Positions 13,397 through 17,347 of a DNA stretch of 41,872 nt are shown one piece after another. The first letter of the stretch is position 1, and every line of letters starts with the position of its first letter. The stretch comes from an uncultured Spirochaeta sp. (lineage in GTDB: Bacteria; Spirochaetota; Spirochaetia; DTKZ01). The notes under the pieces were generated by a model. It made no database searches, was not told where the DNA came from, and worked only from the letters and a program-made list of their open reading frames with translations. The stretch is from assembly GCA_937140905.1 (NCBI GenBank), contig CAKZQO010000177.1, positions 1-41,872 of the forward strand. Reading direction: 5' to 3'. The translations under genes were made by a program, and so were the position numbers.

Positions 13397-14761
13397 GTGA
13401 AAGTACCGAAACACGCCTTGTACTACGAGCAACCCGATCTGTATGAAATTGAAGCGAAAGTCCTTTCCCTTCATCCACGGGACGACAAAGTGTTGGTTGT
13501 CCTAGAACCCTCTCCCTTTTTTCCAGGAAAGGGAGGGCAACCAGGAGATAGGGGATGGATAGGAAATATCCCTATCGTGGGATACGCTCCCATAGAAAAA
13601 CGCCAAAAGGATGGTAAATCCAACCCTTTTGCCGAAGAACAGGAAGAGTCTAACGATACTCTCTATCCTCTGGTAGAAGCGAAATCCTGGACAGAAGAAT
13701 ATCCAACTTTCCTGGACGGTTCAAAAATAGTTTGTCGGGTAGATGGGAAGCATCGGCAGGAGTATCGGGAACAACATACCGGCCAGCACTTAGTGTCTGC
13801 GTTATTGAAAAAACTCTTGCAGGTGGATACGGTTTCCGTCCATTTTGGGGAGCAAACAACTACTATCGAAGTGGGCCAAGAATCTTTGCCCGAAGGATAC
13901 AGAACCCTGATCCAAAACGAGGCAAATCGAAAGATCCTCGAAAATCCTCCGGTTCGTACATATTGGATCGATAAGGATGAGTACGAAACCGTATCCCTTC
14001 GACGAGTCCCTCAACTTAAAGGGCCGTTGCGGGTGGTAGAGATCGAGGGAGTAGATCGAACAGCCTGTAGTGGAATTCATCTAGACAGCCTCGCTCCCAT
14101 ACGGTTGGTCTTGATTCTGGGAGAAGAACGGATTCGAGGGAGGCTCCGGCTCCATCTGTTATTGGGGGAGCGAGCGATTCGGAGGCTTGAACAAGCCGAA
14201 GAAATCCTATCCTCCTTACGTTCAATCTGCACGGCGGGCACAGAGGATTTACCTAATGTGGTCAAGGGCCTTCAGGAAGAAGTCAAATCTCTCATGCAAC
14301 GATACTCATACTTGAAAAAGGAATACTTTTCTTTGAAAATGAAGGAATTACTTCAGACGGGTAGAGAACTGGTTATTGCAGGGCAAAGGAGAGGAACGTT
14401 CCTCTGTCTCGATCTAGCAGAAGGGGAAATGGAGGACCTTAGGTTTCTGGAAGAAGCGTTTCTCAATCAAACTCAGGGGATGCTCCTTTTGGGGTTGGTC
14501 CGTAAAGGGAAAGAAGGGAACACGGTGGCCTTTCTAGGGGCTCATAACTTATCACCTATAGGGGGAAACTGTCTCTCAAATTTTGATCTCCGGGAAGTGT
14601 TCCAGGAACCCCTGAAGACTCATGGAGGAAAAGGGGGAGGTAATCCTTCTAGAGTCCAAGGTTCGTTTCCCTCAAAGGAACTGTGGGAAAGGTTCAAGAG
14701 AGAGATTGAGTCCGTTTTACATAGATCAACCGATCATCTCCCTCACGGTAGAAATCCTTGA
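13397..14761 (+). CDS. AlaX-type alanyl-tRNA editing protein, long form
   Basis: A 454-residue homologue of the editing half of alanyl-tRNA synthetase; it hydrolyses Ser or Gly wrongly attached to tRNA-Ala. The N-terminal segment has FFPGKGGQPGDRG. The zinc site is visible as HTGQH plus the later Cys and His of ACSGIH. Helical residues (about 265-330) lead into a DHHA1-like C-terminal domain with GGKGGGNPSRVQG. No aminoacylation domain is present, so it is a free-standing trans-editing factor. The start is a GTG; no in-frame ATG gives the complete N-terminal motif, and no good Shine-Dalgarno is seen. The last 68 nt overlap the convergent GNAT gene. Confidence 0.85.
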   Translation: MKVPKHALYYEQPDLYEIEAKVLSLHPRDDKVLVVLEPSPFFPGKGGQPGDRGWIGNIPIVGYAPIEKRQKDGKSNPFAEEQEESNDTLYPLVEAKSWTEEYPTFLDGSKIVCRVDGKHRQEYREQHTGQHLVSALLKKLLQVDTVSVHFGEQTTTIEVGQESLPEGYRTLIQNEANRKILENPPVRTYWIDKDEYETVSLRRVPQLKGPLRVVEIEGVDRTACSGIHLDSLAPIRLVLILGEERIRGRLRLHLLLGERAIRRLEQAEEILSSLRSICTAGTEDLPNVVKGLQEEVKSLMQRYSYLKKEYFSLKMKELLQTGRELVIAGQRRGTFLCLDLAEGEMEDLRFLEEAFLNQTQGMLLLGLVRKGKEGNTVAFLGAHNLSPIGGNCLSNFDLREVFQEPLKTHGGKGGGNPSRVQGSFPSKELWERFKREIESVLHRSTDHLPHGRNP

Positions 14762-15185
14762 TCCGTGCTTCCAGGGTATACCCGTTTCGTTCGTAAAAAG
14801 ACCGGGTGGGGGCATATTTTTCCTGGGAAGATGTCTCGATGATGATCAATCTTCCTCCTGCCTTTCGTATGACCTCTTCGGTAAATAGAAGCAACTGTTT
14901 GCCGATCCCACAACGCTGGTACAGAGGGTCTACCGCAATCCAGTACAGGTCAAAGGTTCCTTCGGTAGCGGGAGTAGGACCATAGCAAACGTAACCCAAC
15001 ACCTTTCCTTCCCTGTCAGCGGTGTATAGGATGTAATCTTTCTGTTCTGGATGGTTGAGCCATGCATCGACCAACTCCAGGGCTACATCGATCTCTGCGG
15101 GAGTGAACATGGAGGTGCGATGAAGGATATCCAAAATGGAGGATCGATCTTCTACGGTTGTTGGCCGAATACGGATGGATGTCAT
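14694..15185 (-). CDS. GNAT-family N-acetyltransferase
   Basis: A 163-residue acetyl-CoA-dependent transferase. Motif A is clear (WIAVDPLYQRCGIGKQLL, about residues 86-103), followed by motif B (SFYERNGYTLEARI). The fold and length are those of single-domain RimI-like GNATs. The ATG has AAGGAG upstream and lies 2 nt after the stop of the ATP-grasp gene, so the two form an operon. The 3' end overlaps alaX by 68 nt on the opposite strand. The acceptor could be an amine or amino acid made or used by the ligase next door, but this is a guess from position only. Confidence 0.85.
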   Translation of the reverse strand: MTSIRIRPTTVEDRSSILDILHRTSMFTPAEIDVALELVDAWLNHPEQKDYILYTADREGKVLGYVCYGPTPATEGTFDLYWIAVDPLYQRCGIGKQLLLFTEEVIRKAGGRLIIIETSSQEKYAPTRSFYERNGYTLEARIKDFYREGDDRLIYVKRTQSLS

Positions 15186-15187
15186 GA

Positions 15188-16192
15188 CTAAGTCTCCTTC
15201 AGTGGTAAGTTGTTTTCGATTAGGATCTTTAGAAACTCTTCGTAAGGGATGCCGGCAGCTTTCAAGGCTTTGGAGAATCCTGCTTGGAGGCTTATATCCG
15301 GATTGGGATTGAATTCCAGCACATACGGGTTTCCTTCTCTATCTAGGCGAAAATCTACTCTCCCGTAATCTTTTCCGCCGAGAACCTTCCAGGTTTCTAC
15401 TGCCAAGGTTCGTAGTGTTTCTGCTAGCTCTGGGCTCACGGATGCTGGGCAAATGGAAGGGGTTAACCGAAACTCTGGACTATCCTCGATCCATTTGGCT
15501 TCGTACGATACGAGGGCTGATCCTTCTTGTTCAAGATCTTTTAGGGATACTTCAGAGATAGGAAGGGTATGTAATTCTCCTTCCCTTTCTAGAAGACTTA
15601 CGTTGAACTCCCGACCTGGAAGGAACTCTTCAATGAGTATTGGCTCTCGGTATTGTTCATAAAGGTCCTTAGTTACCTGATGCAAGCTTTTCATGTCCTT
15701 TACTACATTTCGTTTCTCAATACCCACACTGGCATCTTCCTGGGATGGTTTTACGATCAAAGGAAAGGAAAAAGGGATGCTATGCGGTAGATTGCCCCCA
15801 TGGTAAACCACCCATCTGGGAGTAGGAATCCCGCTCGCAGAGAGAATCCGTTTAGTTAGGTCTTTGTCTTGGGCAATTCCAAGAGTTTTGGCAGAATTAC
15901 CCGTGAATGGGATTTCTAGAAGCTCCAAGAGCGCTGCCACATGCATTTCCTTCTTTGCGTTACCTCGAAACCCTTCGCAAAGATTGAAGATCAAAGGGGG
16001 AGAAGGGGAAAGATCATGCACAAGCTTCTGGACATCTGTTATAGGATAGCGAATACAAGGGAACCCGAGGATCTCCAGATGGGCATACACAGCCTCTACT
16101 TCTTCCTGGACCGCGGCTTCGGAGATCCAATCCTTCGTTGCTCCATGGTATAGTTCTTCGACGGCGTTGTATAATATCCAAAAGGGCCCCAT
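15188..16192 (-). CDS. D-Ala-D-Ala ligase-like ATP-grasp enzyme
   Basis: About 334 residues with ATP-grasp organisation. An N-terminal domain contains FNLCEGFRGNAKKE. The ATP lid and binding segment is PLIVKPSQEDASVGI, followed by EEFLPGREFNVSLL. The C-terminal metal site is KDYGRVDFRLDREGNPYVLEFNPNPD. It resembles D-alanine-D-alanine ligase, but the residues around the second substrate differ from what I know of Ddl, so it may join another carboxylate and amine. The ATG at 16192 is preferred over the TTG at 16228, because that TTG coincides with a -35-like TTGCGA, and TAGATT ends 7 nt before the ATG. It forms an operon with the GNAT gene. Confidence 0.75.
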   Translation of the reverse strand: MGPFWILYNAVEELYHGATKDWISEAAVQEEVEAVYAHLEILGFPCIRYPITDVQKLVHDLSPSPPLIFNLCEGFRGNAKKEMHVAALLELLEIPFTGNSAKTLGIAQDKDLTKRILSASGIPTPRWVVYHGGNLPHSIPFSFPLIVKPSQEDASVGIEKRNVVKDMKSLHQVTKDLYEQYREPILIEEFLPGREFNVSLLEREGELHTLPISEVSLKDLEQEGSALVSYEAKWIEDSPEFRLTPSICPASVSPELAETLRTLAVETWKVLGGKDYGRVDFRLDREGNPYVLEFNPNPDISLQAGFSKALKAAGIPYEEFLKILIENNLPLKET

Positions 16193-16199
16193 GGTGGAC

Positions 16200-16228
16200 A
16201 ATCTATCGGTGCGTCTAACCTTTCGCAA
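16200..16228 (-). promoter_or_regulatory. Promoter of the ATP-grasp/GNAT operon, near-leaderless
   Basis: TTGCGA (16228-16223), 17 nt, TAGATT (16205-16200), then 7 nt to the ATG at 16192. The predicted leader is about 1 nt. Confidence 0.45.
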
Positions 16229-16252: not shown

Positions 16253-16281
16253 TTGACGCCAGGAAGATTCCGGTTTACACT
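16253..16281 (+). promoter_or_regulatory. Sigma-70-type promoter of a small RNA candidate
   Basis: TTGACG (16253-16258), exactly 17 nt, TACACT (16276-16281). The predicted start site is about 16288. No ORF of useful length starts before the terminator at 16349-16377. Confidence 0.6.
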
Positions 16282-16287
16282 ATTTTC

Positions 16288-16377
16288 AAGGTAACCGGTG
16301 GAAAGGGGGATTTTCCCACGAGGGGGATTCCCGGAGGTCTAAAGGGGTAAGGAGAGGGCTTCTCTCCTTTTTTTTTT
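16288..16377 (+). ncRNA. Candidate small RNA of about 90 nt
   Basis: The segment lies between a good promoter and a strong intrinsic terminator and has no coding frame. A hairpin can form from GTGG (16298-16301) with CCAC (16316-16319), closed further by AAA/TTT. A second small hairpin uses GGG (16324-16326) and CCC (16330-16332). ACC (16294-16296) may pair with GGT (16336-16338), enclosing both. Two similar blocks, GGGGGATTTTCCC and GGGGGATTCCC, stand in tandem. I compared it by eye with SRP RNA, 6S RNA and common riboswitch cores and found no match. It may instead be an attenuated leader of the lipoprotein gene at 16487. Confidence 0.5.
16349..16377 (+). terminator. Rho-independent terminator
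   Basis: AAGGAGAG and CTCTCCTT form a perfect 8-bp stem around a 5-nt loop. The stem runs into ten consecutive T (16368-16377). It is the clearest intrinsic terminator in the window. Confidence 0.85.
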
Positions 16378-16486
16378 GCGTGCGGTGATACGTTAGCTCT
16401 CCTTTTTACACACGTATTTTACAGCCATGATATATCTCCCCTTCACTAATCTTCAGGCGGTGCCGAAATTGTGGATAGGAGAAAGT

Positions 16487-17347
16487 ATGGGAAAGGGTTT
16501 ACTTTTCTGGGGATGCTTGGTTTTTTTCCTTCTATCCTGTCAGACAGAAGAATTGAATCGTCTAAAATCAGAGAACGAATCCCTTCGGAGGGACCTGTCG
16601 ATCTGCAAAAGCGAAGAAACAGAACTCCGACGAAAGGAAAGGGATTTAGTGGGACGAATCAACTCCCTCGAAACGGAATTAAAAGAACTGCGAGAAGCAG
16701 GAGAGAAGCTTACCAAGGAAAACGAAGCTCGAAAAAATAGGATCCTTCAGTTGGAGAGGGAACTTGCTATTTTGAAAGAAGATCATCAATACCTTAGCAG
16801 GATCCTGGAAGAGCTTCGGTTCACTGCCCAATCTAACTCACGGGAAAAGGCACCTCTTGAAACCGGACAAAAAGGATGGGAGGATCGAAGTGGGCTTAGA
16901 AAGCTTAGACACCCAGATGGAAGGATAGAGTACTTTGATGCGAGCGTGTCCTCCTTGGATAGCCAGAGTATGTTCCTTTCCATCGAGGAGAAGCCCGATG
17001 GGACTTTATCCCTCTATTTGAATATTCAACATGGGTACTGGGTGATCCGAAAAGACTATTCTGTGGTAGGCATCGCTATTTCCAAGGGTGGAAAAACCTT
17101 ATCGATTCCCTATTCTCTTTCAGATGTATATGCGGTGGAGCAGGGGGGATTCCGGAAAGAGATCCTTAGACTCCCTGTGAAGGGGAAAATCTTGGATATC
17201 TTAAAGGAACTAGCCGAAGGAGAAAGTGAGATCCGTATCCTAATTGCTTTTCCAGATTTTTCTCAAGATCGGGTGCTTTCCCGTCTAGAAGTGCAGGGAA
17301 TGGGAAACGTGTACTATGCGTTTCGAGAAATGGGGGGCTCTCTTTAG
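16487..17347 (+). CDS. Coiled-coil lipoprotein
   Basis: A 286-residue protein starting at the ATG at 16487, with TAGGAG 5-6 nt upstream. An upstream in-frame ATG at 16427 would place 20 residues before the signal peptide and is rejected. The signal peptide ends in FFLLSC, a true lipobox, so the protein is probably a membrane lipoprotein. Residues about 22-120 are a long heptad-rich coiled coil (LNRLKSENESLRRDL and so on). The C-terminal 150 residues form a mixed alpha/beta region (IEYFDASVSSLDS...DGTLSLYLNIQHGYW) that I do not recognise. The gene stands alone and converges with the transglutaminase-like gene 13 nt downstream. A structural or adaptor role is possible. Confidence 0.75.
   Translation: MGKGLLFWGCLVFFLLSCQTEELNRLKSENESLRRDLSICKSEETELRRKERDLVGRINSLETELKELREAGEKLTKENEARKNRILQLERELAILKEDHQYLSRILEELRFTAQSNSREKAPLETGQKGWEDRSGLRKLRHPDGRIEYFDASVSSLDSQSMFLSIEEKPDGTLSLYLNIQHGYWVIRKDYSVVGIAISKGGKTLSIPYSLSDVYAVEQGGFRKEILRLPVKGKILDILKELAEGESEIRILIAFPDFSQDRVLSRLEVQGMGNVYYAFREMGGSL

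What the first reader, a model, noticed from the sequence alone, without database searches (positions are those of the whole stretch)
16253..16377. Free-standing small RNA candidate of about 90 nt with its own promoter and terminator
TTGACG-N17-TACACT is followed by a structured, non-coding, G-rich segment with tandem GGGGGAT(TT)TCCC-like blocks. An 8-bp stem plus T10 terminator ends it, 110 nt before the next gene. No known RNA family was recognised by eye. It could be a trans-acting sRNA, or an attenuator or riboswitch for the downstream lipoprotein.
Basis: seen in the sequence. Interest (0 to 1): 0.6.

Follow-up and report, generated by a model that had tools for sequence, protein, structure and literature searches.

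The report
Genus-specific spirochaete small RNA gene
This is very probably a real, previously undescribed small RNA gene of about 90 letters, kept with its own start and stop signals in four related uncultured spirochaetes and nowhere else we looked; what it regulates is unknown.

Summary
A sigma-70-type promoter (TTGACG-N17-TACACT, 16253-16281), a G-rich segment and a strong intrinsic terminator (16349-16377) are present. On this sequence alone the promoter match and the folding energy do not exceed chance. Comparative evidence decides the matter. The same promoter-RNA-terminator unit sits at the same place, beside a divergent ATP-grasp gene, in all four held genomes of the genus. Promoter hexamers and spacer length, a 15-nt motif (AAAGGGGGATTTTCC) and the terminator stem are nearly invariant, although fourfold-degenerate sites of the neighbouring gene are randomised between the most distant pair. 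No Rfam family matches, it is not SRP RNA, and no credible homologue appeared in about 290 other genomes of the class. The leader/attenuator reading is unlikely: in one species the lipoprotein gene is absent and the next gene converges on the RNA, yet the RNA is kept. Best reading: an independently transcribed, probably trans-acting regulatory sRNA. The target is not identified, no Hfq was detected, and no compensatory base changes support a fold. A CsrA-sponge role is possible in this FliW-CsrA organism but poorly supported. It is a new member of a known kind (lineage-specific bacterial sRNA).

The parts
16253..16281 (+). sigma-70-type promoter TTGACG-N17-TACACT
   Evidence: conserved with the same 17-nt spacing in G001 and G002 (TTGACG/TACACT) and G003 (TTGACG/TACAAT)
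16288..16377 (+). predicted sRNA of about 88-90 nt (5' end inferred about 7 nt after the -10 hexamer)
   Evidence: covariance model finds it once in each of the 4 genus genomes (94-112 bits; next best in those genomes 21 bits)
16302..16316 (+). invariant 15-nt motif AAAGGGGGATTTTCC
   Evidence: Identical in all four species
16306..16332 (+). predicted internal hairpin GGGGAUUUUCC / GGGGGAUUCCC
   Evidence: Consensus fold of 4 sequences: pairs kept or changed on one side only (U-A/U-G, G-C/G-U), none changed on both sides; weak support. G003 on its own prefers another fold
16341..16377 (+). conserved AAAGGGG(T/A) plus intrinsic terminator AAGGAGAG...CTCTCCTT with T10
   Evidence: terminator stem invariant in four species
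15188..16228 (-). divergent neighbour: ATP-grasp / D-Ala-D-Ala-ligase-like gene, the constant syntenic anchor (true start may be the inner ATG near 16192)
   Evidence: Pfam; orthologues beside the RNA in all four species
16427..17347 (+). downstream lipoprotein gene (lipobox LLSC; probable start ATG at 16487 behind AGGAGA); not required for the RNA
   Evidence: found only in G000-G002 of nine family genomes

Best explanation
A stand-alone small RNA gene, specific to one genus of uncultured spirochaetes, is transcribed from its own housekeeping-type promoter and ends at an intrinsic terminator to give a 3'-polyU RNA of about 90 nt. It most likely acts in trans as a post-transcriptional regulator, pairing with mRNAs through its conserved G-rich segments (the invariant AAAGGGGGAUUUUCC and the AAAGGGG before the terminator). 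Shown here: the gene unit, its purifying selection, its independence from any particular downstream gene, and its genus restriction within the genomes searched. Inferred: transcription, the trans mode and the pairing segments. Not found: a target or an Hfq chaperone.
For: Found at the syntenic place in all four genus genomes, with promoter hexamers, 17-nt spacing and terminator kept. The RNA is 92% and 88% identical to G001 and G002 where neighbouring genes are 79% and 74-75% at DNA level, and 71% to G003 where the neighbouring gene is 59% and its fourfold sites are at chance (27%). The flanks of the RNA do not align with G003. In G003 the gene beyond the terminator is a convergent 566-aa gene whose stop codon lies inside the terminator. 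The lipoprotein gene was found only in G000-G002 and the 566-aa gene only in G003 and sister genera, so the RNA outlasted a change of neighbour. No Rfam match; SRP RNA is encoded elsewhere.
Against: No expression data. Only four sequences, and no pair with compensatory changes on both sides. No Hfq match in any of nine family genomes. A search for the complement of the invariant motif gave counts no higher in G000 than the reversed control, and no match shared between species except the RNA gene itself. Other antisense matches were not shared either.
Confidence: 0.62

Rival explanations
1. A protein-sequestering RNA: its GGA motifs bind CsrA and titrate it, as CsrB/RsmZ do, in an organism that also has FliW.
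For: csrA and fliW lie next to each other in all four genus genomes. The RNA carries 5-8 GGA motifs in about 90 nt, more than mononucleotide shuffles.
Against: GGA number is not above dinucleotide-preserving shuffles in three of four species (P 0.36-0.69; G003 P 0.04), and ANGGA occurs only 1-2 times per RNA. One GGA is lost in G001 and another in G002. Most GGAs are paired in predicted folds instead of lying in hairpin loops. fliW is anti-correlated with the regulators of Csr sRNAs (PMC7652899).
Confidence: 0.12
2. A cis-acting leader, attenuator or riboswitch of the downstream lipoprotein gene, with the 90-nt RNA as its terminated form.
For: In G000-G002 the lipoprotein gene lies downstream on the same strand, 110 nt after the terminator in the window; no clear separate promoter was found between them.
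Against: In G003 the RNA, promoter and terminator are kept although the lipoprotein gene is absent and the next gene converges. The DNA between terminator and the lipoprotein's own short leader is not conserved and differs in length. No Rfam riboswitch matched.
Confidence: 0.12
3. A cis-antisense RNA or transcription insulator for the ATP-grasp neighbourhood: in G003 it lies antisense between a 566-aa gene and the ATP-grasp gene.
For: The ATP-grasp gene is the one constant neighbour; sister genera have the 566-aa gene directly before ATP-grasp on the same strand, so the RNA probably arose in that spacer.
Against: In G000-G002 no gene is known to be transcribed across it on the other strand, yet the RNA is kept with an internal conservation pattern not needed for an insulator or a perfect antisense RNA.
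Confidence: 0.08
4. A short peptide gene (GTG start, MERGIFPRGGFPEV).
For: Same 14 codons open in G000 and G001 with two synonymous differences.
Against: Start codon lost and frame shifted by indels in G002; no matching frame in G003.
Confidence: 0.03

Closest known systems
Intergenic, independently transcribed trans-acting bacterial sRNAs (general class)
   Same: Own sigma-70-type promoter, about 90 nt, intrinsic terminator with poly-U tail, short invariant segment, lineage-restricted
   Different: No target known, G-rich rather than C-rich putative pairing segment, no Hfq detected in the family
CsrB/CsrC/RsmY/RsmZ family CsrA-sequestering RNAs
   Same: Several GGA motifs; host has CsrA
   Different: GGA not enriched over dinucleotide shuffles, not in conserved hairpin loops, not individually conserved; host has FliW
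Bacterial small SRP RNA (RF00169)
   Same: Similar length, single copy
   Different: True SRP RNA is encoded elsewhere in the same genome (G000:C169, 67 bits); no Rfam match here

Membership tests
Stand-alone intergenic sRNA gene | Own promoter conserved with the RNA | tested here: met
   TTGACG-N17-TACA(C/A)T in four species
Stand-alone intergenic sRNA gene | Own intrinsic terminator | tested here: met
Stand-alone intergenic sRNA gene | Conserved more than neighbouring neutral sequence | tested here: met
   RNA 71-92% identical; fourfold sites of neighbours 26-60%
Stand-alone intergenic sRNA gene | Independent of the downstream gene | tested here: met
   downstream gene differs and converges in G003
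Stand-alone intergenic sRNA gene | A discrete transcript is made | not testable with these tools
   No RNA data
Trans-acting base-pairing sRNA | Conserved complementarity to mRNA translation starts | tested here: inconclusive
   Only the exact complement of the 11-nt core and BLAST-level antisense matches were tested; none shared between species
CsrB/RsmZ CsrA-sequestering RNA | Multiple (A)NGGA motifs in hairpin loops, above chance | tested here: not met
CsrB/RsmZ CsrA-sequestering RNA | CsrA present | tested here: met
Lipoprotein riboswitch/attenuator | Linked to a downstream gene across species | tested here: not met
Any Rfam 15 family | Covariance model score at or above gathering threshold | tested here: not met
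Small SRP RNA | Match to RF00169; sole SRP RNA of the genome | tested here: not met
   SRP RNA at G000:C169

The most novel reading that the evidence does not exclude
The RNA sequesters CsrA in a spirochaete that also uses FliW, i.e. protein and RNA antagonists act on the same CsrA; [quoted passage not shown]
Probability: 0.1. Interest if true: 0.6.

Novelty: new member of a known kind. Interest (0 to 1): 0.36.

Why it matters
Among spirochaetes, sRNAs have been mapped mainly in Borrelia (own knowledge and PMC5216591, PMC10319736). This one belongs to a lineage of uncultured spirochaetes in which no Hfq was detected, and could serve as a defined case for asking how sRNAs work there. Its birth in a spacer between two ancestral genes, and its survival when one of those neighbours was replaced, would be a traceable example of a new regulatory RNA gene. 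Until expression and a target are shown it remains an orphan sRNA.

Tried and rejected
Known RNA family: rejected (no Rfam match at gathering; only chance hits at E 0.67-1.7). SRP RNA: rejected. 6S RNA: no 6S match in the family's genomes, this RNA included. Paralogues or more distant homologues: the covariance model finds one copy per genus genome; hits outside the genus (E 3e-4 and weaker, in about 290 genomes) were inspected for the best few and are mostly unrelated terminators with a similar stem or chance G-rich matches. Pattern hits in Prevotella, Chlorobiaceae, Sedimenticola and Oscillospiraceae were not examined and are taken as chance. Peptide gene: rejected (frame broken in G002, G003). 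G-quadruplex: tracts of three or more G fall to two in G003, so not conserved. Target search through the invariant motif: nothing shared between species. Compensatory base changes: none. The first multiple alignment used two loci on the wrong strand and was redone.

Full report
What was checked. The sequence shows TTGACG (16253-16258), a 17-nt spacer, TACACT (16276-16281), a G-rich segment and a terminator stem with ten T at 16349-16377. On this sequence alone these are not beyond chance: promoter-like sites 2 against 0.8 expected, terminator-like sites 3 against 1.1, folding z-score -0.43.

Conservation. A DNA search of 60 relatives found the segment in all three other held genomes of the genus, E = 4.5e-51 (G001), 4.2e-39 (G002) and 7.1e-15 (G003), and no convincing match elsewhere. 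The aligned unit keeps both promoter hexamers and the 17-nt spacing, the 15-nt AAAGGGGGATTTTCC, TTCCC/TTTCCC, AAAGGGG, and the terminator stem.

Strength of selection. The neighbouring ATP-grasp gene is 79, 75 and 59% identical at DNA level between G000 and G001, G002, G003, with fourfold-site identity 60, 53 and 27%. The RNA is 92, 88 and 71% identical. Against G003, synonymous sites are saturated, so the shared RNA core and promoter imply purifying selection.

Independence from neighbours. The constant neighbour is the divergent ATP-grasp gene. In G000-G002 a lipoprotein gene follows the RNA on the same strand; this gene was found in no other genome of the family. In G003 its place is taken by a 566-aa gene on the opposite strand whose stop lies within the RNA's terminator. 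The 566-aa gene is ancestral: sister genera carry it directly before ATP-grasp on the same strand, and in the three upstream stretches read, G004, G005 and G008, there is no room for an RNA; it was not found in G000-G002. The simplest history is that the RNA gene arose in the spacer in the ancestor of this genus, and later survived the replacement of the 566-aa gene by the lipoprotein gene. This argues against a leader or attenuator function. G003 is 79% complete, so absence of the lipoprotein gene from its whole genome is not certain; its absence from this place is.

Identity. No Rfam family reaches its threshold. The SRP RNA is elsewhere. A covariance model from the four sequences finds a single strong copy in each genus genome (94-112 bits; next best there 21 bits) and only weak hits elsewhere. 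Of the best weak hits inspected, most were unrelated terminators and one a chance G-rich match.

Structure. Consensus folding gives an irregular 11-bp hairpin joining the two G-rich blocks, plus the terminator. Pairs vary only on one side (U-A/U-G, G-C/G-U) and none shows a compensatory double change. G003 alone prefers another fold. The fold is therefore a hypothesis. The invariance of the first block across saturated divergence suggests a sequence-specific role such as pairing to mRNA, but the complement of its core was no commoner in G000 than the reversed control and no match was shared between species apart from the RNA gene itself.

Mechanism. A trans-acting base-pairing sRNA is the default reading of such a unit and the one I commit to (0.62); this is inference. 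No Hfq match was found in nine family genomes. CsrA and FliW are present and adjacent, so I tested the sponge idea: GGA counts do not exceed dinucleotide shuffles in three of four species and individual GGAs are lost in relatives. It is kept only as a minor rival. It would be notable because a review states that joint action of FliW and sRNAs on CsrA remained undetermined (PMC7652899).

Verdict. A real, genus-restricted, undescribed sRNA gene: a new member of a known kind. Expression and target remain to be shown.

Noticed in passing
L023:2676-4376 (-), and orthologues in G004, G005, G006, G007, G008: A 566-aa family-wide gene without any Pfam match lies directly before the ATP-grasp gene in sister genera and G003, but was not found in G000-G002, where a lipoprotein gene occupies the place.
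   Followed up: partly
window 14694-16228 (-): A GNAT acetyltransferase gene and an ATP-grasp, D-Ala-D-Ala-ligase-like gene form a pair seen also in G002 and G003; substrate unknown.
   Followed up: no
G000:C105:4286-4830, and the same in G001-G003, G005-G007: fliW and csrA are adjacent in seven of nine family genomes; both are undetected in G004 and G008 (83 and 60% complete).
   Followed up: no
window 16430-16490: About 50 nt just before the lipoprotein start (TTCAC.AATCTTCAGG..GTGCCGAAATT..GGATAGGAG) is conserved in G000-G002 and separate from the sRNA; it may be the lipoprotein's own leader or an earlier in-frame GTG start.
   Followed up: partly
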